Below the pieces are notes generated by a model. The model did not search any database and had not been told where the DNA came from. It saw only the letters and a list, made by a program, of their open reading frames with translations. A program made the translations under genes and the position numbers. Of a stretch of DNA of 64,000 nucleotides, positions 34,428-61,359 are shown one piece after another. The DNA lies in assembly GCA_002999035.1 (NCBI GenBank), contig CP027241.1, positions 2,049,001 through 2,113,000 on the forward strand, read 5' to 3'. The stretch's first letter is position 1; each line of letters begins with the position of its first letter. The DNA comes from Lachnospiraceae bacterium oral taxon 500 (GTDB lineage Bacteria; Bacillota; Clostridia; Lachnospirales; Vallitaleaceae).

Positions 34428-34500
34428 GAAAAGATAGGAAGGAAGCCGCTTATGTTGCAGAGGGTTTCCTGCTATGTGCAAGGATAAGAGAGGAGCAGTC

Positions 34501-36039
34501 ATGAAACATGAATTAATTATTGTATTGGACTTTGGCGGGCAATACAATCAGCTGATTGCCAGAAGAGTGCGGGATGCCGGGGTTTACTGCGAGGTGTTGC
34601 CTTATGATACACCGGTGCAAGAACTAATCGGCCGCAGGCCAAAGGGGATTATTTTTACCGGCGGGCCGAATGTAGTGACGGCAGCGGATGCGCCCAAAGT
34701 GGAAAAGGAAATTTTTGAAGCGGGAATCCCGATTTTGGGGATTTGCTACGGCTGCCAGCTGATGAGTTATGTGCTGGGCGGGCAGGTGCAAAAGGCGGCG
34801 CAGCGTGAGTACGGAAAAGCGGATTTGCGGATTACAAAGCCGGGCAGCGCTTTGTTTGAGAAAGTGAGTGCAAATACCGGCAGCTGGATGAGTCATACAT
34901 ATTATGTCAATCAGGCGCCGGCAGGCTTTGAAATAACGGCTGAGACCGATACCTGTCCGGTTGGTGCCATGGAAGATACGAGCCGTAAGCTCTATGGCGT
35001 GCAATTCCACCCGGAAGTGGCACATACGCCGGAGGGACAGAAGATGCTGGAAAACTTTTTGTTCCGGATATGCGGCTGTATCGGCGACTGGACGATGAAA
35101 GAGATTGCGGTGGAGCAGATTGAAAAATTAAGAGCCAAAATCGGGGATAAGAAGGTGCTGCTGGCTTTATCCGGCGGTGTTGATTCCTCGGTTGCCGGGG
35201 TACTGCTGCATAAGGCGGTCGGCCGGCAGCTGACTTGTATTTTTGTTGATCATGGTTTGATGCGCAAAAATGAGGGCGACGAGGTTGAAAGGGTTTTTAA
35301 ACAACAGTTTGATATGAATATGATTCGGGTCAACGCCGAAGACCGCTTCTTAGGGCGCCTTGCCGGGGTAACCGATCCGGAAACCAAGCGGAAAATCATT
35401 GGCGAGGAATTTATTCGTGTCTTTGAAGAAGAAGCCAAGAAAATCGGCACGGTTGATTTTTTGGCGCAGGGCACGATTTATCCGGATATTATCGAAAGCG
35501 GCACCAAGGATGCAGCGGTGATAAAATCGCATCACAATGTAGGCGGCCTGCCTGACCATGTGGATTTTAAGGAAATTGTTGAGCCGCTGCGCGATTTGTT
35601 TAAGGATGAGGTTCGAAATCTTGGCCGCGAACTGGGGATTCCGGAGTTTTTGGTCTCGCGTCAGCCTTTCCCGGGGCCGGGTCTGGCAGTACGGGTGATT
35701 GGCGAGGTAACGAAGCATAAGCTGGATATCCTTAGAGATGCTGATTTCATCTTCCGGGAAGAACTTGAAAAATCGGAGCTTAAAGGTACCGTCGGACAAT
35801 ACTTTGCAGTATTAACCAATCTCCGTAGCGTGGGTGTCATGGGGGATGAAAGAACTTATAATTATACTCTGGCACTGCGGGCGGTCGATACCTCCGATTT
35901 CATGACGGCAGACTGGACGCGGATCCCGCATGACATCTTGGCGAGAGTGAGCAACCGAATTGTGAATGAAGTCAAAGAGGTCAATCGGGTCGTGTATGAT
36001 ATCACCAGTAAGCCACCGGCAACGATTGAGTGGGAATAA
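34501..36039 (+). CDS. guaA: GMP synthase (glutamine-hydrolysing)
   Basis: This enzyme converts XMP to GMP using glutamine and ATP. The N-terminal class I amidotransferase has the nucleophile in GICYGCQLM and the His-Glu pair in FHPEVAHT. The ATP pyrophosphatase domain has the [11 protein letters not shown] loop, and the C-terminal dimerisation domain ends in PPATIEWE. The 512-aa length is standard and AGAGGAGC precedes the start. The 3' end of guaA is a known chromosomal integration target, and the mobile island begins right after it. Confidence 0.97.
36025..36039 (+). other. Candidate attachment site at the guaA 3' end
   Basis: The last codons of guaA (ATTGAGTGGGAATAA) match the region known as an integration target for guaA-specific islands. 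Base composition changes sharply just after it, and an excisionase and integrase remnant lie 2.5 kb downstream. I did not find a second copy of this sequence within the window, so the right boundary is unproven. Confidence 0.35.
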
Positions 36040-40863: not shown

Positions 40864-42703
40864 CATTGAAAACTGAATAAAATACACAGGATTAAGAAAG
40901 AGGCTTATGCCTGTTCCATTAATTCCATCATTTTATGAAATCCCAGAAGATTTTTCGCTCTTTCTAGGTTATATCCCAGGCAAAAGAGCGCAAACTCCCC
41001 AGCCACTTTTTGCATTCCTTTTAGAAGAAAATAAGTGGCTCCCATACCACGCTTTATAGTTCCGAATGGATGCTCTGACAGGCACATCCTCTGGTTTGTT
41101 TTCTCCCTGTCTGGTTTCAGAAAGAACTTTACAACCTGCCTCTTTTCGTAATGCCATTTTTCTTTTGGCTTTGTTTCTTCTGGTGTATTTCCTTCTGATT
41201 TCAGCCAGTCTTTACATGGTTTCTCCAGCTGATCTTTTGTAAAATCAATTTCTTTCCATTCACCTTTTCCCTTGTAACATTTATTCCGATTCGGGCAATG
41301 CTTACACGCATTTTTGTTTGCATAACGGATATTCCCATTTTTCTTTATGCATTTCTGCCTCAGGATCTTTCCTGCCGGACAGTATACCAGATTTCGCTCC
41401 GGATCTCTGACAAAATAACCTGTTTCTGCCTTTCTCAACATTTCTTCTGGACTTCCATATACACCACTTTTTGCCGGCTTTTCATCTACTACTTTCCGGC
41501 GCACAGTCTCTACCTTTATATCCTGTATTACTGACGCATAAGCTTCCGGTATCTGTCCTGCATGCAGTGCTTTCTTTAATTCCTCCGGATCTGTGCTGGT
41601 AAGATCAGCTTCCGATTTTTCATAAGGTATTTCAATTTCATAACCATCTTTTCCGTCATCTGTTATGACATGGGGAATAATACCATTTTCCAGGCAGCCT
41701 GCCATATCTTCCGTATCCTCATAGCCTTTATCAGCCACTACCTTTACGATTTTTCCCGGCTCCGCTTTCTTCACTTCCTCCATGGTGCTTTCTAACAGTC
41801 CGTGATCAGTTACCTGATTTGTCATCTGGAAATCCCGGATCAGATGAGTCTCTGAATCCACTGCTGTCTGAGGATTATATGCTACCGCAAACCCATTCTT
41901 ATTCTTCATAAGTTTTGCGTCTGCATCTGTGATTGACAGCTGTGATGCTCCTGTCTCTTCCATCAGTTTCTGATATCCTTCATACCTTGCAAGCCGTTCC
42001 TTCGCCTCTTCTAATTTAGCCTCAAGTTCCTCTCTGGTTAATTCACCCGGTATTTCATCGTATTCTTCCTGCCGATCCATTTCATTAAGTATCCGCAGAT
42101 ATTCATCTGTATATCCATTCAGCCACTTAATTCTGTCATCCAGTTTATTTTTTGTGAAGTTGTTGTCTTTCGAATTATTAGTCTGGATCTTCGTTCCATC
42201 TACAGATGAAAACCCCCATTCTACCGCACCAGAAATTCTCCTGTTAAATTCATGAAAGATTTCTTTCAGACTGTCTATGTTGTTTTTTCTAAGATCTGCA
42301 ATCGTTCGGAAATCAGGTGCTACTCCACCAGTCATCCATTTCACTTCAAGATTCACTTTGCAACTCTCTGCGAGTTTCCGTGAAGAACGGATTCCTTTTC
42401 TACTTCCATAGATATAGAGCTTGTAAAGACTTTTCGGATCGTATGATGGGCGACCTTCAATTGCTACAGTCTTTACTCCCAGTTTCTTTATATCAAGATG
42501 CTCTACAAATGCATCTATTATCCTCGCAATACTTTCTTCATCTACTAATACATCCCATGAACAGCACATCAACTGGTCACGGTCAAAACCTGAAACATAT
42601 GGCATCTCATCACACCTCAAAACGGAATATTTTCTCTGGTTTTATTACACTATATTTGAACCATCGCTGCATGATTTCTGCGTACGTTATTCAGTTTTCA
42701 ATG
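40864..42703 (-). mobile_element. IS1182-family insertion sequence
   Basis: Exact 17-base inverted repeats (CATTGAAAACTGAATAA at 40864-40880 and its complement at 42687-42703) flank a single transposase gene. The length of about 1.84 kb fits the family. No obvious target duplication was identified. Confidence 0.85.
40905..42605 (-). CDS. IS1182-family transposase
   Basis: This long DDE transposase, about 566 aa, has the N-terminal DUF772-type domain (VAIEGRPSYDPKSLYKLYIYG), then FSSVDGTKIQTNNSK with the first catalytic Asp, VVADKGYEDTED with the second, and a zinc-binding-like CKHCPNRNKCYKG. The C-terminus has HPFGTIKRGMGATYFLLKG with the catalytic Glu region. The start MPYVSGFDRDQ at 42605 is chosen for its GAGGTG site. 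It reads through without stops, so it may still be active. Confidence 0.9.
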   Translation of the reverse strand: MPYVSGFDRDQLMCCSWDVLVDEESIARIIDAFVEHLDIKKLGVKTVAIEGRPSYDPKSLYKLYIYGSRKGIRSSRKLAESCKVNLEVKWMTGGVAPDFRTIADLRKNNIDSLKEIFHEFNRRISGAVEWGFSSVDGTKIQTNNSKDNNFTKNKLDDRIKWLNGYTDEYLRILNEMDRQEEYDEIPGELTREELEAKLEEAKERLARYEGYQKLMEETGASQLSITDADAKLMKNKNGFAVAYNPQTAVDSETHLIRDFQMTNQVTDHGLLESTMEEVKKAEPGKIVKVVADKGYEDTEDMAGCLENGIIPHVITDDGKDGYEIEIPYEKSEADLTSTDPEELKKALHAGQIPEAYASVIQDIKVETVRRKVVDEKPAKSGVYGSPEEMLRKAETGYFVRDPERNLVYCPAGKILRQKCIKKNGNIRYANKNACKHCPNRNKCYKGKGEWKEIDFTKDQLEKPCKDWLKSEGNTPEETKPKEKWHYEKRQVVKFFLKPDREKTNQRMCLSEHPFGTIKRGMGATYFLLKGMQKVAGEFALFCLGYNLERAKNLLGFHKMMELMEQA

Positions 42704-42898: not shown

Positions 42899-43114
42899 AT
42901 GAAATTCTCATATAACAAGTTATGGAAGTTGTTAATCGACAGAAATATGAATAAAGGCGATTTGCAGAAATTAATAGAAACCGGTCCGTCCACCATTTCA
43001 AGAATGGGACGAAACGAGCCTGTAAGACTTGAAATCTTAGGAAGAATATGTGAGAGATTGAATTGTAACATTGAAGATATCATTGAGTATGAAAGAGGAA
43101 AACAAGATGTATAA
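42899..43114 (+). CDS. XRE-family regulator linked to a methyltransferase
   Basis: This 71-aa helix-turn-helix protein ([21 protein letters not shown] to [17 protein letters not shown]) is of the type found directly before C5-cytosine methyltransferases in restriction-modification loci. It overlaps the methyltransferase start by 8 bases. It probably binds the palindrome at 42858-42874. The partner genes downstream are broken, so it is an orphan. Confidence 0.75.
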
Positions 43115-43397
43115 ATCAATTGATTTGTTTGCCGGAATCGGAGGGATCAGGCTTGGATTTGACCAGGCATTCGGAAATAATATCAAGACTGTTTTTATAA
43201 GCGAATGGGATGAAAAAGCGGTAGAAACTTATAAAGCAAATTTTAATGACAGTATCGATGTAGTCGGAGATATTATAAAAGTTGATGAAAAAGACATTCC
43301 CAATCACGATATATTGCTTGCAGGCTTTCCTTGTCAGGCGTTTTCCCTTGCAGGACATAAAAGAGGGTTCGAGGATGGTGAATTAAGTGAAAACTAA
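43107..43397 (+). pseudogene. DNA (cytosine-5) methyltransferase, N-terminal fragment
   Basis: The start at 43107 gives [20 protein letters not shown], motif I (AdoMet site) of C5 methyltransferases. [20 protein letters not shown] is motif IV with the catalytic Cys. The protein stops after 96 residues. Motifs VI-X and the target recognition domain, over 200 residues, are missing because a deletion joins it to the vsr fragment. Confidence 0.85.
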
Positions 43398-43753
43398 TAT
43401 GGAATAAGGGGTTCAGATATAGATTAAACTATAAGGAGTTGCCCGGAAGTCCTGATTTATATATTCCCAAATACTGGGTTGCTATTTTTGTAAACGGTTG
43501 CTTTTGGCACATGCATGAAAATTGCAGGTATTCATCCATTCCTAAAAACAATCATGATTTTTGGAAAAACAAACTTGAAGGGAATGTTGAAAGAGATAAG
43601 CAAAACTACATCAAACTTGAAAACAGGGGCTTTAAAGTGATAGTGGTTTGGGAATGTGAAATTAAAAAGGTGATGAAAGATGAAGTAATTTCAAAGCAGT
43701 ATATGGATACAATTTTATACGAAATTACAAACAGTATGAAGTGTAAGAATTGA
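43391..43753 (+). pseudogene. vsr: Very short patch repair (Vsr) endonuclease, 5'-truncated
   Basis: Readable from about 43391 without a normal start: NKGFRYRLNYKELPGSPDLYIPK, then the Vsr signature VAIFVNGCFWHMHENC, and KQNYIKLENRGFKVIVVWECE. The first half of the protein is absent. In intact loci the methyltransferase makes 5-methylcytosine and Vsr nicks the T:G mismatches from its deamination. Here the deletion removed the ends of both genes, and with them any restriction enzyme gene between. Confidence 0.8.
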
Positions 43754-44055: not shown

Positions 44056-44091
44056 TAATATTCAATGAATAATAAGATGGCGGTGAAAATT

Positions 44092-47000
44092 ATGGGATAT
44101 TCAGCAAAAACAAAACCGGGAATGGCAGATCCTTATTGGTATGAATGGTCTGTGGGGCAGAAATATATCGTAGAAATGCTTAATCCGGATAGCCATATTC
44201 AGTATGTTGAATTACAGGCAGATGTTCAATTAGGTTTAGATGATGTAGTAATCACATATGATGATGGCAAAACGAAATTTATTCAAGTAAAGCATACTAG
44301 AGTTGATGATACGATAACTTTTGGGGATCTTGTTTCTGTTGATAAATCTAAAAAGGATACTAAGTCTCAATGTTCACTATTAAGAGAACTTGCAAGGTCA
44401 TGGAAATTGGAAAAAGACTTGTATACAGATTCGGAAGTATATATCTTTACAAATAGAAAAGCAGGGAATAGGGAATCATTGGCTGGAAAAGGAAGAAACG
44501 TTAAAAGACCATCTTTAAATAAGTTTTTGGAAGAATTACAAGAAAAAGTAAGTAAAGTAGAGCAGTTTTCAGATTTAGTTTTTCCTGATAATAAAGAAGC
44601 GTGGAAAGAATGGTGCAGTCAACTTCAAGATATCGAAATGGATGAGGACAAGCTTACTTTTTTGCAGAATCTACATATCAAAACAGATCAGGAAAGTTTA
44701 GAAGAGTTAGGAAATTCTATAAAAAATAAACTGCAGATTTATTTTTCGGTCTCTGAGGAAATGTCAGATATCTTACTTGGAAAACTTGATCATGCACTGA
44801 GAGAGTGGACTACATCGGGACGAGAAAGTTCAAAAGTAACAATTGAAAAACTGTATTCCGCATTATCTGTAAAAGAGGAGGTTATAAATTACAATCATGA
44901 TTTAATTCCTGTGAATCCTTTTTTTGATAGTAGGCAGGAATTAGTCACTCAAATCGAAGCTGATTTGTTAGTAGGTGAGGAAAAAGTTTTTTATGTATCA
45001 GGTGTACCTGGAACGGGGAAAACTAACATTATTAGCAAATTATGTAGTAAAAAAGATAGTATAGTTGATATTCGTTATTATGCATATGAGCCTATTGACC
45101 CGGCAAAAGAGTATTTACCGGCAGATGTTTCTGAAAGAGTGAAAAGAGAGGTGTTTTGGAATACATTACTGAACCAATTAAGAGAACTATTGGTTGGTAG
45201 GCTATATAAATACAAGGTGCCTGTGTCTAATAGTTATCTAAAGCTCGAGGAAAAGAAAAAGGAATTTTTTAGAATAGCTTCAGAATTTGCAAAAGATAGA
45301 GATCGTGTATTTATACTTGCGGTTGATGGACTAGATCATGCTGCTAGAGCAGGTGTGGTAGAGGAAACATTTCTACCAACACTGCCTAATCCGGAATATA
45401 TTCCAAGTAATGTGAAAATTATTCTTGCAGGTCAACCAAAGGAAGATTATAAAAATTACCCAGATTGGTTGTATACAGGTTCTAAGCAAATTAAGGAATA
45501 TTTAGTTCCAAATATTCAGCCAAGTGATATTGAAGAACTTGTAAATGAAAGATGTACTAACTACAGCTCATCTAACAAAAAAATCGTTACTAATATTGTT
45601 TGTAAATATGCGGGTGGTAATACATTGGCCGCAATTTTTGCTGTACACGAAGCTTTGAGTTGCGATAATCCTGCGTCACTTGATGCTAAACTTAAGTCTA
45701 GAAAATTGAGCGGTAACATTCAAGAGTATTATCGGACGATATGGGAAGATACGAAAAAGAAGATGCAGATTCCGTTTGTGGATTATAAGATGGCTGGAAT
45801 ATTTGCATTTTTTAACGAGCCTGTTAGTGGAGAAAATCTTAGCCTGATTTTCAAAGAAGAAGGAATTAGCTCTTCTTCATGGAATAACGTTCTGAAGGCG
45901 TTGAGTCCGCTTTTGCTAGAAAGAAAGGGTGCATATACCATACTTCACAATGATGTGCGTGTGTATCTTTCAGGAATTATTGGAAGGGATCAAGAGCATG
46001 TAAAGGAAGTGTACTCCGGTTTAGCAGATTACTATCTTGCACAAAACGAGAAGACTATCGGTTTTTACCGAGATGTTATTAGACTTTTGGTGTCAGCAGG
46101 AAGAATACAAGAATTTCCAATAATATATACTCCGGAATATGTGCTAAATGCCTATGTTAATGGAATTGAATTGTCAGAACTATCTCATATTACAGGGGGA
46201 TTAATGCGCTTTGTTATTAACGAGGATTACCTTGATTGGAATAAACTTCTGAGTGTGACATTGGGATATTTAACCATTGAACAGATACAAAAAACCTCAT
46301 ATGAGATAGAGGGCTTATCTTTCCGGTCAAGTGTTAAAACTATAAGTGTTCATCCTTATGAATGCTATGTTGTATCATCCGATAAGTGGAATTCTAGAAT
46401 ACTATCAGAAGTGCTACAGTTAATTGATGATTTGTTTGAAAATGGAGAGGAATACCGTGGAAAAACTCTATTTTTAAATTGGTTTACTGATATTAAGTTT
46501 TCAGAAATACAAAAAAATATAGATGATGAAAATGATGACTTCCGACCGGGTGATGATAGAAATATCGCTGAATTACTAAGTAAAGCTTGTGTTAATACAG
46601 AACATTTTGAAATTCTAGATGGTATTTCTGAACTTGAAGGTGACAAATTTTTAATAAATACTGTTGAACATGTTATAGGTGAAATTATTGAAAATCTTCA
46701 CGCAGAAAAGCTGGAAAAGGCTCTTGGGTCTCTTGATCTAATTTTAATAGATCCTCTTGTAGTTGGAATAAAAAAACTAATTGAGCAAAATCGTTATGAA
46801 GATCTGAAAATTCTAAAAAAGTCGATTCAAAAACGAAAAATTTCTAACTCCATGAGTATGATGATATTCTCTTTTCTAAAAATTGTGACAGGAGACGTTG
46901 ATTGGGATGATAATAAAGCTGGTGTTGTTTGGGGTGAAATTGAATCAGTGGAGATGCCGGATGATAAGATTGAAAACTTAATGACCTACTATACTATTTA

Positions 47001-49968
47001 TGCAATCGTAGCATCATATATACAGAAAAAAAGTAGAGCAACAGTAGCCCAAGAAATCACCGATAAATATATTAATGCTCATAAATATAACAAATCAAAG
47101 TATTTTTTGTTGTATTTTAATGCTGTCACTTATTTAGGAAAATGGCTTAAAGCGAGAAATGAGAAAAAAGTTTTTTTTGAATCGAAGATGGATCTTAAGG
47201 TTATAATAGAAAATCTATTCTGTAAGCCTTGGAATACGAATGAAAGAGATTTTGAAACTTTCTATCTCCGAGCTTATATCTTAAAGGTATATATTATGCT
47301 TTCTGAAAAGGAGAATAATCAATTTCAAAATGACATTGAAGAATCATTAAAAAAGGTATTCGCTGAGAATCCGATCAATCAGTTGCTTGACCCGGGAATG
47401 CTATATTACAGAACCAATCCTGAAAGAATGCAGCAATGGATTGATGAATGGCTGGATGACAATGGAAAAGTATGGTCAGAACCTATTGGTGATAGGAACA
47501 GTATAATAAAGAAATTCACAGAAGCGAAAGAAAAATATGATAAGAACAATCATCTTAATCTTCGAGGTGCTGCGGATAGAGTTAAATGGTCTGTTATCGG
47601 ATTTGCATCACATAAGGAATACAGTGTAGACTATTTGTTAAATTGGTATAATAATCTTGTTGACAGATTTCCTGAGTATATTTCCAAGTATGGAGAAGTG
47701 GTTAAAGACATTTCTGATAAAATTGAGGTGCTTGGAGATAATAGGATAGAATATATATTAAACAGTAAAATCTATTCTGACTTTGGAAGCGAAGGGGCTA
47801 TTCGGATTCAAAGTATATTGGACAATAAAGTATTATTTGGTCAATGTATTGCTCAACCATCATATATAGTAGATATATTGATTGGATACCTCAAAGATCG
47901 TAAATTTGATAAGAAACAACTTCTTACAATTTGGGCGATAGGAATAGGTTTACTTGATTGGAGAAATGACGGGGATTATGATGCTATTTCTGCATTACAA
48001 AGATCAATTGAAATTTGTGCAACAAAAAATGGAATACTTGATATAAAAAAAGATTTGTCAAAGCTTGGACCTGCATATATTGATTTTTTGACGGATCCGG
48101 GGAGATATATTATTCCAGGCAGATGGTGTGATAATAAAAATAATGTTAAAGAATTTGATAATGCAGAAGAGATATTGACATCATATATTACAAATAGCGA
48201 TGAAGATTTACCAGAATATTCTGATGTTATTAAGGCACTAAAGTCTCTTTATACTGATAATAAGTTAAGTGAAACTCAAGTTAATCAAGTGCTTGCTGTT
48301 GAGCTAAGCAAAGACAATTATGGCATTAATCAAAATAGTATCTTAGAATTTATATTTGGTATTGCAAAAGATAATGATATAGATGAATTCTTAAGGCAAT
48401 ACATTAGAAAGGCTATTGATAATAATAGATTCTATCCATATTTAGATCTACCATATATTATTGGTTGGAGACTTAAATATAAAAAAGAAGATTATATTGT
48501 TGAATGTCTTGAAAAATTAATTGAAACTTTCAAATGTTGGATTACAGCCTCCAATCATATTAAAGAACCTGAGTTGAAAGAGGAATATGATTATTCTAAA
48601 TATGTAGATTTTGAGTCAGAAGATTTATTGGATAACTTAATTGAAGTTCTGTTGTTAGTGATTATATCGGATGATGCTGATGCTGCAAGAGTAGCTATTG
48701 GAGGTATAGCGGCTATATTACGTGTAAATATTGATTATATTTCTAAAATAGAGAAACATTGGAATAGATTACATTATCGTGCAAAAGAATGGATTCTAAT
48801 GGTATATGAATTCGTTTATGAATTATGTCCTGAACATAGAGAAAAGATTTATGAATATTTAGTTCTTCATTCAAAAGATGATGATTTTAATTCGGCTCTG
48901 TACTCAAAACTACTTTGTGAGAATATTAATCCTGAATATTCAGAAGTGTATTGTGTTGAAAAAAAAGACTGCTTTTCTTCAATTCCTACGAATGGTCAAA
49001 AACTATTTATAAAAACAAATCGAAATAGCTCTTGGATTAATGGATATGAATGCGTGTTGGAGCAAAAATCATTAATAGAGGAACGTTTATACATTGATTT
49101 GATGGATATTGAAAGACGTACGGCAGATTATTTGGAGAATATAGCAGTTCCACTCGCGTTATTACCTCTTTTCAGAAGCAAAGTCGGAGGGTGTAGAGTT
49201 GTATGCGATAAAGTGAATTTAGCTTTTTTCCGTGTCTTATACAAGGATTGGTATTACGGAAGGTGGGATGGCGTAGAGGCTGAATTGGCGAGAGTTATAC
49301 TTTCTGCTTCTGAACCATTCACATTATTATTGTCTCCCTATAAATGGAAATGGAATGGTGGGAGATTATTCGACAATCTGAAGGACGTGATTTCACTATC
49401 TGAAAAAGAAAGAAATTCTAGTATAGACGAACTGTTTAATACGGGTATCAATTCTGATGATATTGTACTGGCGGGTGCGATTGAGGACTATACATATAGT
49501 CAGCAACTTTTTGGTTATATTTTAGGGTATTTAGACGTGCCGGAAATGAATGAACAATATGCGCTTCCAGAAGTTGAAAGAAATGCACGTTTATTTTTAA
49601 TGAAGAGAGAAGACTATATTGAATATCAAAGTCCAAATGTAACAATACATCAGAATGGAATTGAGAGTTTTAAGCAAAGTAATATTATGTGTGGATTTAG
49701 AAAAATAATACTTTCAGCATTAGGGTGGGAAACGAGATTTGATTCGGATGGCTTGGGAATTGTAAATTCAAACGATGAAATAGTAGGAAGATTAGAGTGT
49801 TTTTACGGATTAAGAACAGGCATAGGAAATAGATTTCTGTCGAATCAACCGTATGTACAGAGGTGGGTTGTAAAGAAAGATTCTTTGAAGAAAGCACTTG
49901 AAGAATCAGGATGTCCATTTCAAATAAAAACAGTAATAGGATCTTTGATACTAGACGATGAAGAATGA
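44092..49968 (+). CDS. Giant STAND NTPase with Cap4/DUF4297-like nuclease domain (Avs-like)
   Basis: A predicted antiviral sensor-effector of about 1958 aa. Residues 1-150 look like a PD-(D/E)xK nuclease of the Cap4/DUF4297 kind: E18 in YEWSVGQ, D50-D51 in LGLDDVVI and the QVK motif (65-67, FIQVKHT). A P-loop follows at 304-311 (GVPGTGKT), with Walker B FILAVDGLDHA around 408-417, the STAND pattern. The remaining 1400 residues are helical, as in sensor regions of Avs proteins. The start at 44092 is preferred because GGCGGTGA lies 5 bases upstream; ATG at 44065 has no such site. Codons are very AT-rich. Binding of a phage protein and DNA cutting are inferred from the family. Confidence 0.75.
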   Translation: MGYSAKTKPGMADPYWYEWSVGQKYIVEMLNPDSHIQYVELQADVQLGLDDVVITYDDGKTKFIQVKHTRVDDTITFGDLVSVDKSKKDTKSQCSLLRELARSWKLEKDLYTDSEVYIFTNRKAGNRESLAGKGRNVKRPSLNKFLEELQEKVSKVEQFSDLVFPDNKEAWKEWCSQLQDIEMDEDKLTFLQNLHIKTDQESLEELGNSIKNKLQIYFSVSEEMSDILLGKLDHALREWTTSGRESSKVTIEKLYSALSVKEEVINYNHDLIPVNPFFDSRQELVTQIEADLLVGEEKVFYVSGVPGTGKTNIISKLCSKKDSIVDIRYYAYEPIDPAKEYLPADVSERVKREVFWNTLLNQLRELLVGRLYKYKVPVSNSYLKLEEKKKEFFRIASEFAKDRDRVFILAVDGLDHAARAGVVEETFLPTLPNPEYIPSNVKIILAGQPKEDYKNYPDWLYTGSKQIKEYLVPNIQPSDIEELVNERCTNYSSSNKKIVTNIVCKYAGGNTLAAIFAVHEALSCDNPASLDAKLKSRKLSGNIQEYYRTIWEDTKKKMQIPFVDYKMAGIFAFFNEPVSGENLSLIFKEEGISSSSWNNVLKALSPLLLERKGAYTILHNDVRVYLSGIIGRDQEHVKEVYSGLADYYLAQNEKTIGFYRDVIRLLVSAGRIQEFPIIYTPEYVLNAYVNGIELSELSHITGGLMRFVINEDYLDWNKLLSVTLGYLTIEQIQKTSYEIEGLSFRSSVKTISVHPYECYVVSSDKWNSRILSEVLQLIDDLFENGEEYRGKTLFLNWFTDIKFSEIQKNIDDENDDFRPGDDRNIAELLSKACVNTEHFEILDGISELEGDKFLINTVEHVIGEIIENLHAEKLEKALGSLDLILIDPLVVGIKKLIEQNRYEDLKILKKSIQKRKISNSMSMMIFSFLKIVTGDVDWDDNKAGVVWGEIESVEMPDDKIENLMTYYTIYAIVASYIQKKSRATVAQEITDKYINAHKYNKSKYFLLYFNAVTYLGKWLKARNEKKVFFESKMDLKVIIENLFCKPWNTNERDFETFYLRAYILKVYIMLSEKENNQFQNDIEESLKKVFAENPINQLLDPGMLYYRTNPERMQQWIDEWLDDNGKVWSEPIGDRNSIIKKFTEAKEKYDKNNHLNLRGAADRVKWSVIGFASHKEYSVDYLLNWYNNLVDRFPEYISKYGEVVKDISDKIEVLGDNRIEYILNSKIYSDFGSEGAIRIQSILDNKVLFGQCIAQPSYIVDILIGYLKDRKFDKKQLLTIWAIGIGLLDWRNDGDYDAISALQRSIEICATKNGILDIKKDLSKLGPAYIDFLTDPGRYIIPGRWCDNKNNVKEFDNAEEILTSYITNSDEDLPEYSDVIKALKSLYTDNKLSETQVNQVLAVELSKDNYGINQNSILEFIFGIAKDNDIDEFLRQYIRKAIDNNRFYPYLDLPYIIGWRLKYKKEDYIVECLEKLIETFKCWITASNHIKEPELKEEYDYSKYVDFESEDLLDNLIEVLLLVIISDDADAARVAIGGIAAILRVNIDYISKIEKHWNRLHYRAKEWILMVYEFVYELCPEHREKIYEYLVLHSKDDDFNSALYSKLLCENINPEYSEVYCVEKKDCFSSIPTNGQKLFIKTNRNSSWINGYECVLEQKSLIEERLYIDLMDIERRTADYLENIAVPLALLPLFRSKVGGCRVVCDKVNLAFFRVLYKDWYYGRWDGVEAELARVILSASEPFTLLLSPYKWKWNGGRLFDNLKDVISLSEKERNSSIDELFNTGINSDDIVLAGAIEDYTYSQQLFGYILGYLDVPEMNEQYALPEVERNARLFLMKREDYIEYQSPNVTIHQNGIESFKQSNIMCGFRKIILSALGWETRFDSDGLGIVNSNDEIVGRLECFYGLRTGIGNRFLSNQPYVQRWVVKKDSLKKALEESGCPFQIKTVIGSLILDDEE

Positions 49969-54173: not shown

Positions 54174-54418
54174 ATAAACAAAAATGAAAAAAATCAAACA
54201 ATTATTTGGAAATGTGTTATGATTTCCGTTAAGCTGATAGAAAATATAATTAAGAGGAGATTTTATCGATTTTAATGAGTTGGTTAATACAATGCATAAA
54301 ATATTTGTAAGGGAAGAAGATAATATGAGGCCCCATATTTTGGAGTGAAAAACAGATTAAAAGAGTCATAGAGAGTATTAGTGAAGATTTAGTAACTATA
54401 TACATGGAGGTGTGAGTA
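54174..54418 (+). other. Intergenic stretch with coding fragments
   Basis: Two short open stretches in different frames can be read: one around 54265-54350 (DFIDFNELVNTMHKIFVRE) and one around 54343-54418 (WSEKQIKRVIESISEDLV). They look like the C-terminal piece of a decayed small gene. The last bases provide GGAGGTG for the gene at 54419. Confidence 0.3.
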
Positions 54419-57400
54419 TTGAATAATGTAAATCTTATTCAAAGAGCAATCATCCAATTGGAGGGAGGGGCCTTTCAAAAATTGTTTGATGTGTATCTGT
54501 ATAAAAAATATAAGTTTAAAAATATTCAAACATTAGGCGTTCAGACGGGCACTAATAAACCTACAAAGGGCACACCTGATTCCTATGTCTTAACTGATGA
54601 TGGAAGTTATATTTTAATAAACTACGGAACTGTGAGCTCACAGTCAGCAAAGAAAATACGTGATGATATTTTATCATGTTTTGATGAGTCGAAACTTTTG
54701 CTGCCTAAGAATAAAATAACAAAAATCATTTGCGGTCACTGTTCCACGAACATTCATATAGAACAGTTTAATAGTATTATGGAATCTATTGAAGGTGTTG
54801 AAATTGAACTTATCGGAATAGATACGCTTTCACATGATTTGGCATTGCTTTATCCACATATTGCAAAAGATGAACTTGGCATTACAATAGATACAAATCA
54901 ATTTTTTGAGGTAGAGGATTTTATTAAAGCCTACGATTCTAATGGTATAAATGCACCTATTAATTGTGATTTTTATCACAGAGAGTCAGAGATTACTGAG
55001 ACATGCAATAGTATACGTAATACTAAAGTTACCATATTGACAGGACCATCAGGAATCGGAAAGACTAGATTGGCCGTAGAAGCGTGTCGAAAACAAGATG
55101 ATGGAATAACAAAAGTTCTCTGTGTCAAAAGCAATGGAAATCTCTTATATGAGGATATTAAGTATTACATTTCTGATCCAGGAAGATATTTGGTTTTCTT
55201 CGACGATGCTAACATGGTTGTAAGCCTAGATAATGTGCTTGGTACTATTTTGACATTGTCAACAGATTTTGATATTAAGGTACTTATTTCGGTAAGAGAC
55301 TATGCCAAAGATAGAGTAATAAAGGCGGTATCGCGGTACGCAACACCGAGCATCATTGAAATTGGACGATTTAAGGATGATGAAATAAGGGATATTTTGA
55401 AGTCTGATTTAGGAATAGTGAATTCGGATTATCTTAAGAAGATTGTTGAAATTGCGAATGGAAACATAAGGCTTGCTTTTCTTGCTGGTATGAGGTTAAT
55501 AGATGATGGATATCGGGCAATACGTAATGCTGAGGATATTTTTAAAAATTACTATGGAAGAATTATTGATGAAGCGAAACTGACAAAAGAAGATATTCTT
55601 ATGTTGTTCTTCATTGCTATAGCTGGCCCGGTAAAGAATAATGAAAACCAGTTGTATAGTGATATGAAGAAATTGTATGGTGCGGAAATTGTTGAGGATA
55701 ATATAATTGAACATTTGTATTCTTTGGAATTAGTAGATTGGTTTAAAAATGAGATTACAAAAATTGCAGATCAGAGTCTCGGTAATTATATATTATACTA
55801 TGTGTTATTTGAGAAAAGGTGGGTAAGTGTAGAAAGTTTGATTTCCATTGGATTTCCTAGATTTCGTAATAAGATTGTATATGCATTGAATACGGTGATG
55901 GAAATATTCAACTCGCAAGAGTGTGCAAAATATATGAAAGATTCAATAATTGCTGCTTGGGAGAATGCGCCTGTTGGACAGGGAAAGGAATATCTCGAAT
56001 CATTTTGCCAGGTTAATCCTGATAAAGCCTTATCTATAATAAAGAATCACATTGATCAAGAAGCACCTGTGAATTTTGACTTATGTAGTTTTGATATTAA
56101 CTCTAAGAAAAACTATCACAATATTATGACTAAGGAAATAGAAATATTAGGCGGTTATAAGTACACGGAGAACTATGAGGATGCAGTTGATCTTCTGATG
56201 CGGTACTTTAAAAAAAGACCGGATCTGATAATGGATTTTTATCTTGTACTAAGTGAGCGATTCTTATATGACGAGCATTCATATAAGTATAAATATAATC
56301 ATGAAACACGCCTAATAGATAAGTTGTGGTGCTATACAGAAAAGGGAAAAAATTACAATAACAGTATATTATATTTACAAATTGCGGAAAGTGCATTAAA
56401 AACAGAACTATCCTTCACTGAAGAGGTTAGAAATAGTAGAGCGATAAATTTCGTAAGAATGACAATCGGGTTCACTGAAGAAATAGCTGATATGAGAACT
56501 CACATATGGAAGAATCTAGCTATTTTACGAAAGAATGAAGAGTATCATTATGTTATTAATGGTATTCTTTTAGGAGTGCACTTTAATGGATTGAATAAAG
56601 AGGACTCCAAGAAATATCTATATTCAGATTTTAATACAATATATGAATATATAATTGACAAAAATACACCAGATTTTTTTGATGCGAGGTTTGTGGCAAG
56701 ATACAAAGAGATAGCGGAGCAAATCGGCATAAAGCCAGACCGACGATTCATGATTGCTGAACGAAATCCAGAATTCAGAATATATAAAATGTTGACTCGT
56801 GAGCATGTAATTGGTAGAACAATAAATGAAGAGGAGCGATTACGTAAAGAGTCTATCTCAAAAGAAATAAGCGCATATGATTTGAAAGATTTCCGTGAAT
56901 TGTTTAGGGTATGTAACTTTTTGAAAAAGACAGTCGATGATAGAGAGCAATGGCCTTTAAATAGGGGCTTAGATTATATTTTTGAAATCATAGAAGACGA
57001 TAGTAAGCTGTATTTGAAGGTACTCGAAGAGTATTTTAATGCAAATGCACCATTCAGGCTAAATGGATATCGCCAGATAAAATATATGCTTGATCATATT
57101 GGATACGAAGCAACGTATTGTTTTGTAAATAATTCTGTGTTTGATAAGAAAGATGTTTGGTTGTCGTTAATTTGGGAGTGCGTACCGGAAGAAAATATAG
57201 ATGAAAAGATAGTTAATGACTATAAAACATTTGTACTAAATAATTTAACGAAAGATAATCCTATAATTCCTGCAGTTCAAGTTGTGATACGTTATGGTGA
57301 ACGAGACAGTGAACTCAAAGCGGAAGTAATCAAGGCGATAGTGGGTAATCCAGAACTTTCGGCAAGCTTTTTGGGCTATGCCTATTATGATGACGATATT

Positions 57401-58123
57401 GAGGAAATTTTTAATTTTTTTAGAAATGATATTAATGCATTGACGTGTATTTATATAAGCGCTTTAACAGTTGGTTGCCATGTTGATTACGATGGGAAGC
57501 TTTTTGTAAAGATATTTGAACAGCAGCCTGCTATTTGGAATGAATATGTAGATTGGGTTAAGATTAAAGATAATATGCGCGGAGATGGTAATGAACATAA
57601 AATTTTTGAATTAATATGGAATGTCGATCAGTGGCGTGAATGCGTGGAATATGCATTTAAGGTTTTTATAGATGATGACAAGTTTTTTTGTATAAAAGAA
57701 CCAGAGGGGTTACTGTTTGTTAAAGCAACTGATGCAACCATATTTGAACGAAAAAAATCGTGGTTGATTGAAAAGTTACGAGAAAACAGCTTAGACATTG
57801 AAAGATGTAAAAAACTCATTGATGTGGTTGTAAATTTTCTTCCGGATTGGAAAATGGCATATATTCTCGAATTTTTGAAAGCCAACAAGAAGCTGGAAGA
57901 TTTCAAGAAAATACACTTATTTCCTTCAACATGGTCATGGTCAGGAAGTGAGATTCCACTTATTATGGAAAAAATAGACTTCCTCAGATTATTGAAGGAC
58001 AACCTTAAGGGAATTGATTATATTGACCATAGAAAATATATTGAAGATTATCGTATGGATCTTGAGAAGTATAAAGAGAAAGTGGAATTAAGAGAATATC
58101 TTGAAAATGCCGATTACGCATAA
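54419..58123 (+). CDS. Large STAND-type NTPase with PD-(D/E)xK-like N-terminus
   Basis: A second large sensor-type protein, 1234 aa, starting with TTG after an excellent GGAGGTG. Residues 1-100 resemble restriction-endonuclease-like domains at the head of some Avs/STAND proteins: E15 in LEGGAFQKLFD and D54 in KGTPDSYV, followed by ILINYGT (65-71), where the usual lysine is replaced, so catalytic ability is uncertain. The P-loop is GPSGIGKT (209-216) and Walker B is YLVFFDDANM (257-266). Helical repeats occupy residues 330-1234. It is AT-rich like its neighbours. Phage defence is the most probable role, by family and location only. Confidence 0.7.
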   Translation: MNNVNLIQRAIIQLEGGAFQKLFDVYLYKKYKFKNIQTLGVQTGTNKPTKGTPDSYVLTDDGSYILINYGTVSSQSAKKIRDDILSCFDESKLLLPKNKITKIICGHCSTNIHIEQFNSIMESIEGVEIELIGIDTLSHDLALLYPHIAKDELGITIDTNQFFEVEDFIKAYDSNGINAPINCDFYHRESEITETCNSIRNTKVTILTGPSGIGKTRLAVEACRKQDDGITKVLCVKSNGNLLYEDIKYYISDPGRYLVFFDDANMVVSLDNVLGTILTLSTDFDIKVLISVRDYAKDRVIKAVSRYATPSIIEIGRFKDDEIRDILKSDLGIVNSDYLKKIVEIANGNIRLAFLAGMRLIDDGYRAIRNAEDIFKNYYGRIIDEAKLTKEDILMLFFIAIAGPVKNNENQLYSDMKKLYGAEIVEDNIIEHLYSLELVDWFKNEITKIADQSLGNYILYYVLFEKRWVSVESLISIGFPRFRNKIVYALNTVMEIFNSQECAKYMKDSIIAAWENAPVGQGKEYLESFCQVNPDKALSIIKNHIDQEAPVNFDLCSFDINSKKNYHNIMTKEIEILGGYKYTENYEDAVDLLMRYFKKRPDLIMDFYLVLSERFLYDEHSYKYKYNHETRLIDKLWCYTEKGKNYNNSILYLQIAESALKTELSFTEEVRNSRAINFVRMTIGFTEEIADMRTHIWKNLAILRKNEEYHYVINGILLGVHFNGLNKEDSKKYLYSDFNTIYEYIIDKNTPDFFDARFVARYKEIAEQIGIKPDRRFMIAERNPEFRIYKMLTREHVIGRTINEEERLRKESISKEISAYDLKDFRELFRVCNFLKKTVDDREQWPLNRGLDYIFEIIEDDSKLYLKVLEEYFNANAPFRLNGYRQIKYMLDHIGYEATYCFVNNSVFDKKDVWLSLIWECVPEENIDEKIVNDYKTFVLNNLTKDNPIIPAVQVVIRYGERDSELKAEVIKAIVGNPELSASFLGYAYYDDDIEEIFNFFRNDINALTCIYISALTVGCHVDYDGKLFVKIFEQQPAIWNEYVDWVKIKDNMRGDGNEHKIFELIWNVDQWRECVEYAFKVFIDDDKFFCIKEPEGLLFVKATDATIFERKKSWLIEKLRENSLDIERCKKLIDVVVNFLPDWKMAYILEFLKANKKLEDFKKIHLFPSTWSWSGSEIPLIMEKIDFLRLLKDNLKGIDYIDHRKYIEDYRMDLEKYKEKVELREYLENADYA

Positions 58124-60573: not shown

Positions 60574-61359
60574 ATGTCAATAAAAGGAGCGGTTTTAGGC
60601 GATATATTAGGTTCGCAGTATGAGTATAAGAGGCCAAAGAATTTGGATTGGCAGAACATTCCGCTAATCATAGAGGGTAAGGCAAAATTTACTGATGATT
60701 CGGTTATGATGCTTGCAATAAAAAAGGCGCTTATTCAAGAAGCTGATTTGGTAGAGACTATGGTTGAAGTTGGACAGAAATATCCGTTTTGTGGCTATGG
60801 TTCTAAATTTTTCTGGTGGATAAATGGACAGGACCACGAGCCATATAACAGTTGGGGTAATGGTTCTGCTATGAGAGTGGCTTTTGTGGGGGAGTTTTAC
60901 GAAGACCATGAAGAAATGCAGACTATGGCAGCAAAAACAGCGGAAGTCTCCCATAATCATCCGGAAGGTATTAAAGGGGCAGTTGTAACGGCAACTTGTA
61001 TCTGGATGGCAAAGCATGGTAAATCTAAGCAGGAAATTTATGATTATGTTTTATCGGAATATCCGACAGGAGAATATGAATACAGCATAGGATACAGCTT
61101 AGATGAAATCAGACCACGTTATAAATGGAATGAAAGCTGTCAGGGCTCAGTTCCGGTTGCTATGCGATGCTTTTATGAAAGCAGTAATTATGAATCATTT
61201 ATTAGAAATATCTACAGCTTGCTGTGTGACAGTGATACTTTTGGGGCAATTGCCGGCAGTGTAGCAGAGGAATTTTATCATGGATTTGGAGATATAGATG
61301 CTGATGGTATATTAAAGAATCATTTGACAGAGGATTTATATGAGATCCTTGTAATGTAA
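60574..61359 (+). CDS. ADP-ribosylglycohydrolase family protein (DraG-like)
   Basis: This 261-aa protein starts IKGAVLGDILGSQYEY, then FTDDSVMMLAIKKAL (acidic metal ligands), HNHPEGIKGAVVTAT, and the C-terminal DSDTFGAIAGSVAEEF with the second metal-binding Asp pair. These are the hallmarks of dimetal hydrolases that remove ADP-ribose from proteins, DNA or small molecules. The length is close to that of typical DraG proteins (about 290). It lies in the same direction, 130 bases after the deoxyribosyltransferase-like gene. Confidence 0.82.
   Translation: MSIKGAVLGDILGSQYEYKRPKNLDWQNIPLIIEGKAKFTDDSVMMLAIKKALIQEADLVETMVEVGQKYPFCGYGSKFFWWINGQDHEPYNSWGNGSAMRVAFVGEFYEDHEEMQTMAAKTAEVSHNHPEGIKGAVVTATCIWMAKHGKSKQEIYDYVLSEYPTGEYEYSIGYSLDEIRPRYKWNESCQGSVPVAMRCFYESSNYESFIRNIYSLLCDSDTFGAIAGSVAEEFYHGFGDIDADGILKNHLTEDLYEILVM

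What the first reader, a model, noticed from the sequence alone, without database searches (positions are those of the whole stretch)
54419..58123. Second STAND protein whose nuclease-like head lacks the usual catalytic lysine
E15 and D54 are in the right places, but ILINYGT replaces the xxK strand. This may be a diverged active site or a dead nuclease used as a sensor or scaffold. Two different giant STAND genes within 14 kb suggest cooperation or serial capture.
Basis: partly seen in the sequence, partly recalled or inferred. Interest (0 to 1): 0.65.

Follow-up and report, generated by a model that had tools for sequence, protein, structure and literature searches.

The report
Avs4-like STAND protein, rewired nuclease head
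This gene encodes a large bacterial immune-type sensor whose DNA-cutter-shaped front end lacks the usual catalytic lysine, as do its sampled relatives, but keeps another lysine and an acid on the next helix, so it is more likely a rebuilt cutter than a decaying one, although activity is untested.

Summary
The ORF is real (54419-58123, + strand, 1234 aa). It belongs to an unnamed STAND family: PD-(D/E)xK-fold head, STAND ATPase, long helical sensor. Avs4 is the best VIA-align match of the head and the best Foldseek match of the remainder; no NCBIfam or Pfam model reaches its cut-off and PADLOC gives no match.

The usual lysine is indeed missing, but this is a family trait: position 70 is Thr, Ser or Gly in 63 of 63 non-redundant heads. 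Heads fall into two groups: 41 keep the motif III acid (E68, with T/S70); 22, the window's among them, have Met or Asn there, always with G70. A tree of 36 rows built without the head gives the same two sides. K79 and D83, one turn apart on the next helix, occur in 63 of 63; K78 and E15 are not conserved. The acid-less heads are at least as conserved as the others, so decay is unlikely.

Best reading: an Avs-like single-gene antiphage effector whose active site (D54 plus helix K79/D83) has partly moved to motif IV. A conserved pseudo-nuclease is a strong rival. Nothing supports cooperation with the neighbouring STAND gene. Catalysis and spatial geometry are untested.

The parts
54419..58123 (+). 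STAND protein, 1234 aa (finding)
   Evidence: ORF; no internal stops; full-length relatives
54406..54410 (+). ggagg, ribosome-binding-like, eight bases between it and the TTG start
   Evidence: read directly
54419..54943 (+). head, residues 1-175, PD-(D/E)xK fold
   Evidence: AF2 of residues 1-185, mean pLDDT 80.5; VIA-align best match Avs4 8dgf_B Z 11.7, rmsd 3.1, 137 aligned
54461..54463 (+).
   Evidence: D 25, N 23, E 19, G 6 of 76
54578..54580 (+). D54, motif II aspartate (GTPD)
   Evidence: 63 of 63 (biased by the search pattern); 12 of 12 pattern-free heads
54620..54628 (+). N68-Y69-G70, place of the (D/E)xK motif III
   Evidence: position 68 E 41, M 14, N 8; position 70 T 35, G 22, S 6 of 63
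54653..54655 (+). K79, invariant lysine on the helix after strand 3 (motif IV position)
   Evidence: 63 of 63; helix 76-86 in the model
54665..54667 (+). D83, invariant aspartate one turn after K79
   Evidence: 63 of 63
55043..55066 (+). Walker A GPSGIGKT, residues 209-216
   Evidence: G212, G214, K215 invariant in 36 of 36 full-length rows
55202..55213 (+). Walker B region DDAN, residues 262-265
   Evidence: D262, D263, N265 invariant in 36 of 36
55859..58120 (+). C-terminal helical region, residues 481-1234, presumed sensor
   Evidence: AF2 of residues 172-1234, mean pLDDT 86, almost all helix there; least conserved part of the protein
44065..49968 (+). other giant STAND gene, different family, Cap4/LmuA-like head
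   Evidence: weak library matches; no homologue beside or in genomes of the relatives tested
34474..36039 (+). guaA, at the left edge of the low-GC stretch
   Evidence: GC 0.44-0.48 before, 0.31-0.41 after; gene name recalled from reading the translation, from no library call

Best explanation
A single-gene, Avs4-like STAND immune protein. Inferred mechanism: the long helical C-terminus binds an invader protein, the STAND ATPase switches and oligomerises, and clustered PD-(D/E)xK-fold heads attack nucleic acid. The active site is a variant. In the sampled family the motif III lysine (position 70) is gone and an invariant lysine on the next helix (K79, motif IV) takes its place. In the window's group the motif III acid is gone too (N68/M68, always with G70), leaving D54 (motif II) plus K79 and D83 on the helix as the likely metal-binding and catalytic set. 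Shown here: architecture, predicted fold, the split into two groups, and conservation of D54, K79 and D83 under purifying selection. Inferred: catalysis, the spatial meeting of D54 with K79/D83, antiphage function, and oligomerisation.
For: Avs4 is the best VIA-align match of the head and the best Foldseek match of the remainder. STAND motifs intact in 36 of 36. K79 and D83 in 63 of 63, position 70 never Lys; KxxxD, after a loop one residue longer, also follows GTPD...QYTT in a head joined to a NACHT protein. Avs4-type heads (one over the Avs4 cut-off, three weaker relatives) have Gln, not an acid, at the motif III acid position (QxK in 4 of 4), so loss of the acid alone does not mean death. 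Precedents: DUF1626, motif III Lys often Thr with the Lys probably moved to the motif IV helix, and motif IV acid D61 in Hjc, 15 residues after E46 as D83 is 15 after position 68 (PMC1913061, passages); Hantaan K124 (needed for activity) and influenza K134 deployed from a helix (PMC4909276, passages); acid migration to that helix (PMC1189080, passages). At matched ATPase identity acid-less heads are as alike or more alike than acid-bearing ones, e.g. 0.48 v 0.38; head dN/dS 0.06-0.14 in the 4 of 28 pairs with head dS up to 1.0. Type I restriction, HaeIII-type restriction and SIR2-STAND genes beside some relatives (examples, no control).
Against: No coordinates were available, so the distance from K79/D83 to D54 was not measured. 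M68 in 14 of 22 acid-less heads is a poor metal ligand. E68 is strict in the other group (41 of 41), so the acid matters there. K79 and D83 are i,i+4 on a helix and could be a structural salt bridge. No activity data. The helix-1 acid of Avs4-type heads (E22 in L103) aligns with Q20 here. The profile comparison with Avs4-type heads is weak (probability 11.5%) and aligns the Avs4 lysine with N68, not 70. VIA-align does not list Avs4 among its first 50 rows for the remainder, and Foldseek does not put Avs4 first for the head.
Confidence: 0.48

Rival explanations
1. Conserved pseudo-nuclease: in the window's group the head lost catalysis once, by loss of E68 and the T/S70 to G70 change, and now serves as a DNA-binding clamp, oligomerisation surface or regulator of the STAND switch.
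For: E to M/N and T/S to G go together (63 of 63) and map to one change on a tree built without the head (36 rows, SH-aLRT 99); the acid is strictly kept in the other group (41 of 41), which suggests it matters there; RecC is a precedent for an inactivated PD-(D/E)xK domain with a new role (PMC1185551, passages); inactive effector enzymes occur in conflict systems (PMC7159879, passages).
Against: Active-site-type residues D54, K47, K79, D83 stay invariant in 22 of 22 acid-less heads (47 and 54 lay in the search pattern), more than a scaffold would need; position 68 is Gln in Avs4-type and NACHT-linked heads.
Confidence: 0.33
2. Active head, but on RNA, tRNA or another phosphodiester substrate, like the cap-snatching endonucleases that also place their lysine on a helix.
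For: Helix-borne lysine as in Hantaan and influenza endonucleases; weak Pfam matches of 16 of 59 heads to L_protein_N, best E 2.2e-4.
Against: The match is below the gathering score for the window (13 v 27 bits, E 0.1); the leading fold matches are DNA nucleases; viral L proteins appear only at ranks 31 and 47 of the viral structure search, E 0.025 and 0.041.
Confidence: 0.12
3. The head needs a catalytic partner, such as the neighbouring STAND1 or another protein supplied by the locus.
For: STAND1 ends 4.5 kb upstream and keeps a QVK motif in its head (read).
Against: No STAND1 match in 8 of 8 other genomes or in 81 other contexts; no recurring partner gene: after the family itself the commonest clusters are a recombinase (14 of 82 sources) and RhuM (11 of 82), mostly in one closely related acid-bearing group.
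Confidence: 0.05

Closest known systems
Avs4 (AVAST type 4), 8dgf; NCBIfam NF041815
   Same: N-terminal PD-(D/E)xK-fold head, central STAND ATPase, long helical C-terminus; best VIA-align match for the head (Z 11.7) and best Foldseek match for the remainder (E 4e-9); spacing of 14 residues between motif II and motif III (L103).
   Different: No NF041815 match in this genome at E 0.001. Avs4-type heads keep E...QxK with the strand lysine (4 of 4 heads); this family has D54...[E/N/M]x[T/S/G] and a helix K79/D83. 1234 v 1557 aa (L103).
Avs5 (SIR2-STAND), 9jap
   Same: STAND ATPase and helical C-terminus (Foldseek rank 3); both resemble nSTAND3 (below the cut-off here; PMC12931631, passages).
   Different: Avs5 has a SIR2 NADase head, not a nuclease fold.
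DUF1626/DUF506/DUF790 PD-(D/E)xK variants with motif III lysine moved to motif IV
   Same: Thr or another residue at the lysine position and a conserved basic residue on the following helix (PMC1913061, passages).
   Different: None of these names is among the 25 of 46 Pfam families shown for the heads; here the acid is lost too in one group and a KxxxD pair is invariant.
Cap-snatching endonucleases (influenza PA, Hantaan L)
   Same: PD motif, lysine deployed from a helix (PMC4909276, passages).
   Different: Viral polymerase domains with a metal-binding histidine; only weak sequence similarity to a viral L-protein family.

Membership tests
[quoted passage not shown]
   AF2 model; VIA-align Z 10.5-11.7 to five nuclease entries; Foldseek alone weaker, best E 1.5e-3
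PD-(D/E)xK superfamily (fold) | Motif II aspartate | tested here: met
   D54, 63 of 63, 12 of 12 pattern-free
PD-(D/E)xK superfamily (fold) | Classical motif III (D/E)xK | tested here: not met
   N68-Y-G70 in the window; never Lys at 70 in 63 heads. Variants without it are described as members of the superfamily
PD-(D/E)xK superfamily (fold) | Nuclease activity | not testable with these tools
   no bench data
STAND ATPases | Walker A and B and an ATPase core like those of NLR proteins | tested here: met
   invariants; NLRC4, NRC2, NRC3 and RFC/Orc matches of the ATPase region, Z 15-16
STAND ATPases | Curated Pfam nSTAND gathering score | tested here: inconclusive
   window 22.1 bits v 27.2 for nSTAND3; relative L008 27.2 v 27.2 (nSTAND3) and 32.8 v 34 (nSTAND_NTPase5)
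Avs4 (AVAST type 4) | NCBIfam NF041815 curated cut-off, 1500 bits | tested here: not met
   no match in own genome at E 0.001; not among the NCBIfam matches of the protein up to E 1
Avs4 (AVAST type 4) | Same domain order and overall fold | tested here: met
   head and remainder were modelled and compared separately
Avs4 (AVAST type 4) | Recognition of a phage protein and abortive DNA cleavage | not testable with these tools
   no bench data

The most novel reading that the evidence does not exclude
A clade of Avs4-like immune nucleases whose motif III is completely emptied (no acid, no lysine) and whose catalysis runs from motif II D54 together with a lysine and an aspartate both carried by the motif IV helix (KxxxD). 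Each half of this move is known separately; both in one enzyme would be an active-site layout that I have not seen described for the superfamily or for bacterial NLR-like effectors in the passages read.
Probability: 0.38. Interest if true: 0.65.

Novelty: new variant of a known kind. Interest (0 to 1): 0.5.

Why it matters
The protein belongs to an immune-type STAND family, found here in at least seven phyla, that the libraries searched do not name. Its two sister groups differ in whether the motif III acid is present, which makes a natural paired experiment: the same architecture with a switched active site. Testing one member of each would show whether 'dead-looking' effector heads in bacterial NLR-like proteins are really dead, which affects how such proteins are annotated.

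Tried and rejected
Pfam and NCBIfam on the window protein gave only matches below their cut-offs, in the ATPase region apart from one NCBIfam match at 849-911 (E 0.28); PADLOC gave none. The PADLOC mad8 signal in 29 of 36 relatives covers only the P-loop region in the three of four proteins examined that show it, so a MADS link was rejected. The NCBIfam FxSxx_TPR signal in 27 of 36 is 15.2 v 300 bits over residues 182-221 of the window. Sequence search of PDB with the head profile: five matches, best E 0.48, none a nuclease; with the full-length profile: 44 matches, all in the ATPase region.

Partner gene: clustering of flanking ORFs found no obligatory neighbour. HsdR relic upstream of the window gene: no significant match. 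A same-strand repeat of the guaA end as an attachment site: none of 13 bp or more in the window. G230 sensor-like ORFs (L003, L005) are remnants; no head match among ORFs of 100 aa or more in 19 kb around them. A scan with the NACHT-linked head found no relative among viral contigs and, in 13 genomes of its family, only itself and a 99% copy. A scan with the head alignment found one viral contig, L092, whose frame stops after 84 codons.

Papers: searches listed no paper whose title or abstract start describes this family; that is not proof of absence. The 2012 superfamily review and the 2022 Avs paper (both recalled) are not held.

Rows dropped before counts: 7 of 75 fetched loci had matching ORFs under 180 aa and were left out of the head alignment (L035, L086, L087, L089, L090, L091, L092); the other 68, the window and 7 heads from other searches make 76, which became 63 after removal at 93% identity; 36 full-length rows were used for the tree (35 fetched loci, after a length limit and an 85% filter, plus the window). 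The tree tool flagged long branches (L084, L085) and odd composition in 10 rows, the window among them.

Full report
What is there. The ORF at 54419..58123 (+) is intact, 1234 aa, TTG start, with ggagg ending eight bases before the start codon. It lies in a genome of 3.2 Mb, in a stretch whose GC falls from 0.44-0.48 to 0.31-0.41 right after guaA (gene name recalled from the translation). Two relatives, L047 and L056, sit directly after a guaA-like gene.

Relatives. The full protein matched 3 of 398 genomes of the phylum (one of them, G230, only over the C-terminal part) and 8 of 392 of the order, both counts including the window's own genome; 14 plasmid records, 13 of them Leptospira; no phage record. 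An alignment of heads found 74 loci in the genome collection and one viral contig. In the order, a head-only profile found the same 8 genomes and no other. In the phylum it found one distant head, on a NACHT protein.

Fold. The AlphaFold2 head model (59 sequences, mean pLDDT 80.5, pTM 0.72) has the element order of the PD-(D/E)xK core. VIA-align gives Avs4 8dgf_B Z 11.7 (rmsd 3.1, 137 aligned), MspJI 11.5, LlaBIII 10.9, AspBHI 10.6, BspD6I small subunit 10.5. Foldseek alone was weaker: no E under 0.001, first a BspD6I nickase at 1.5e-3. The remainder (residues 172-1234, pLDDT 86, pTM 0.66) has Avs4 as first and second Foldseek match (E 4e-9, 6e-9) and Avs5 as third, with low TM-scores (0.22 or less for these three); VIA-align fills its list with ATPase domains such as RFC, NLRC4 and NRC2, lists Avs5 at rank 47 and does not list Avs4 among its first 50 rows.

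Active site. In 63 non-redundant heads: D54 63, K79 63, D83 63, Q20 61, D24 59; position 68 E 41, M 14, N 8; position 70 T 35, S 6, G 22. Every E68 head has T or S at 70 and every M/N68 head has G70. K78 is not conserved (K 17 of 76) and neither is E15. The locus search pattern covered residues 46 to 55, so conservation there, D54 included, is biased; 12 of 12 heads found without the pattern keep D54. K79 and D83 lie outside the pattern.

Two groups. They were defined by the residue at position 68. A tree of 36 full-length rows built from the columns after the head separates the 13 M/N68 from the 23 E68 rows with one change (SH-aLRT 99, quick search, midpoint drawing only; long branches L084 and L085 and odd composition in 10 rows flagged). 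Of 68 fetched heads, 45 have E68, in six phyla (Bacillota, Bacteroidota, Pseudomonadota, Campylobacterota, Cyanobacteriota, Fusobacteriota); the three Leptospira (Spirochaetota) heads aligned also have E68. The 23 M/N68 heads are 20 Bacillota, one Mollicutes, one Melainabacteria and one unplaced. The NACHT-linked head has Q68 and T70, so G70 is probably the derived state; the root itself is not shown.

Constraint. At matched ATPase identity the M/N68 heads are as alike or more alike than the E68 heads (0.42 v 0.36, 0.48 v 0.38, 0.61 v 0.45, 0.69 v 0.61 and 0.79 v 0.79 in five bins that hold 78 of 78 and 252 of 253 pairs; pairs share rows, so they are not independent). Mean head column entropy is 1.20 v 1.78 bits, though the M/N68 set is taxonomically narrower. 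Head dN/dS is 0.06-0.14 in the 4 of 28 M/N68 pairs with head dS up to 1.0, against 0.08-0.27 in E68 pairs with dS under 1; the other M/N68 pairs have higher or saturated dS. The head is the best conserved domain on average in both groups. This speaks against decay but does not exclude a conserved non-catalytic role.

How it may work. Avs1-4 recognise conserved phage proteins and cleave phage and host DNA (PMC12931631, passages). Here the layout is the same, so target sensing by the helical C-terminus, ATPase switching and head clustering are inferred. The motif IV lysine has precedents: DUF1626 with Thr in motif III (PMC1913061, passages) and Hantaan and influenza endonucleases (PMC4909276, passages). 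Motif IV acids and acid migration to that helix are also known. Avs4-type heads carry Gln at the acid position and keep the strand lysine: QxK in 4 of 4 heads, L103 being over the Avs4 cut-off and L106-L108 weaker relatives. Equal spacing of 14 residues from motif II places that lysine at our position 70; the weak profile alignment places it at 68 instead (probability 11.5%). In neither place does the sampled family have a lysine.

Neighbours. No recurrent partner gene was found among 82 sources. Type I restriction genes (L027, L054, L062), a HaeIII-type restriction-methylation gene (L048) and a SIR2-STAND gene (L043) lie beside relatives; these are chosen examples, not a count with a control. 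STAND1 of the window has no match in the 8 other searched genomes or in the ORFs of 81 other contexts, which reach 6 kb or less to each side, so cooperation is not supported.

Verdict. Real, ordinary in architecture (Avs-like STAND), unusual in its active site, and not filed as Avs4 because the curated model does not match. New variant of a known kind.

Noticed in passing
window 43071-43753: A C5 cytosine methyltransferase cut after its first 108 residues (Pfam E 5e-32) is followed at once by a Vsr endonuclease lacking about its first 45 profile positions: looks like a deletion remnant of one restriction-modification locus.
   Followed up: partly
window 44065-49968: The other giant STAND (1967 aa) has a Cap4/LmuA-like head with a QVK motif and an ATPase distantly like Avs1b (33.8 v 1500 bits).
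   Followed up: partly
window 36000-64000: Low-GC stretch that begins right after guaA, with a transposase gene (40905-42620) and transposase-like fragments near 39-40.7 kb and 58.3 kb (read); relatives L047 and L056 of the finding also sit right after guaA.
   Followed up: partly
L116:2063-5347: A NACHT protein of another family carries the same kind of head (GTPD...FQYTT...KLLRD), so the head module occurs on more than one STAND family.
   Followed up: partly
L043:2527-4593: A SIR2-STAND gene (SIR2_2 plus nSTAND_NTPase5) lies next to a relative of the finding: another pair of STAND genes.
   Followed up: no
window 60574-61359: ADP-ribosylglycohydrolase gene (Pfam E 1.9e-27) near the right end of the window, in the low-GC stretch.
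   Followed up: no
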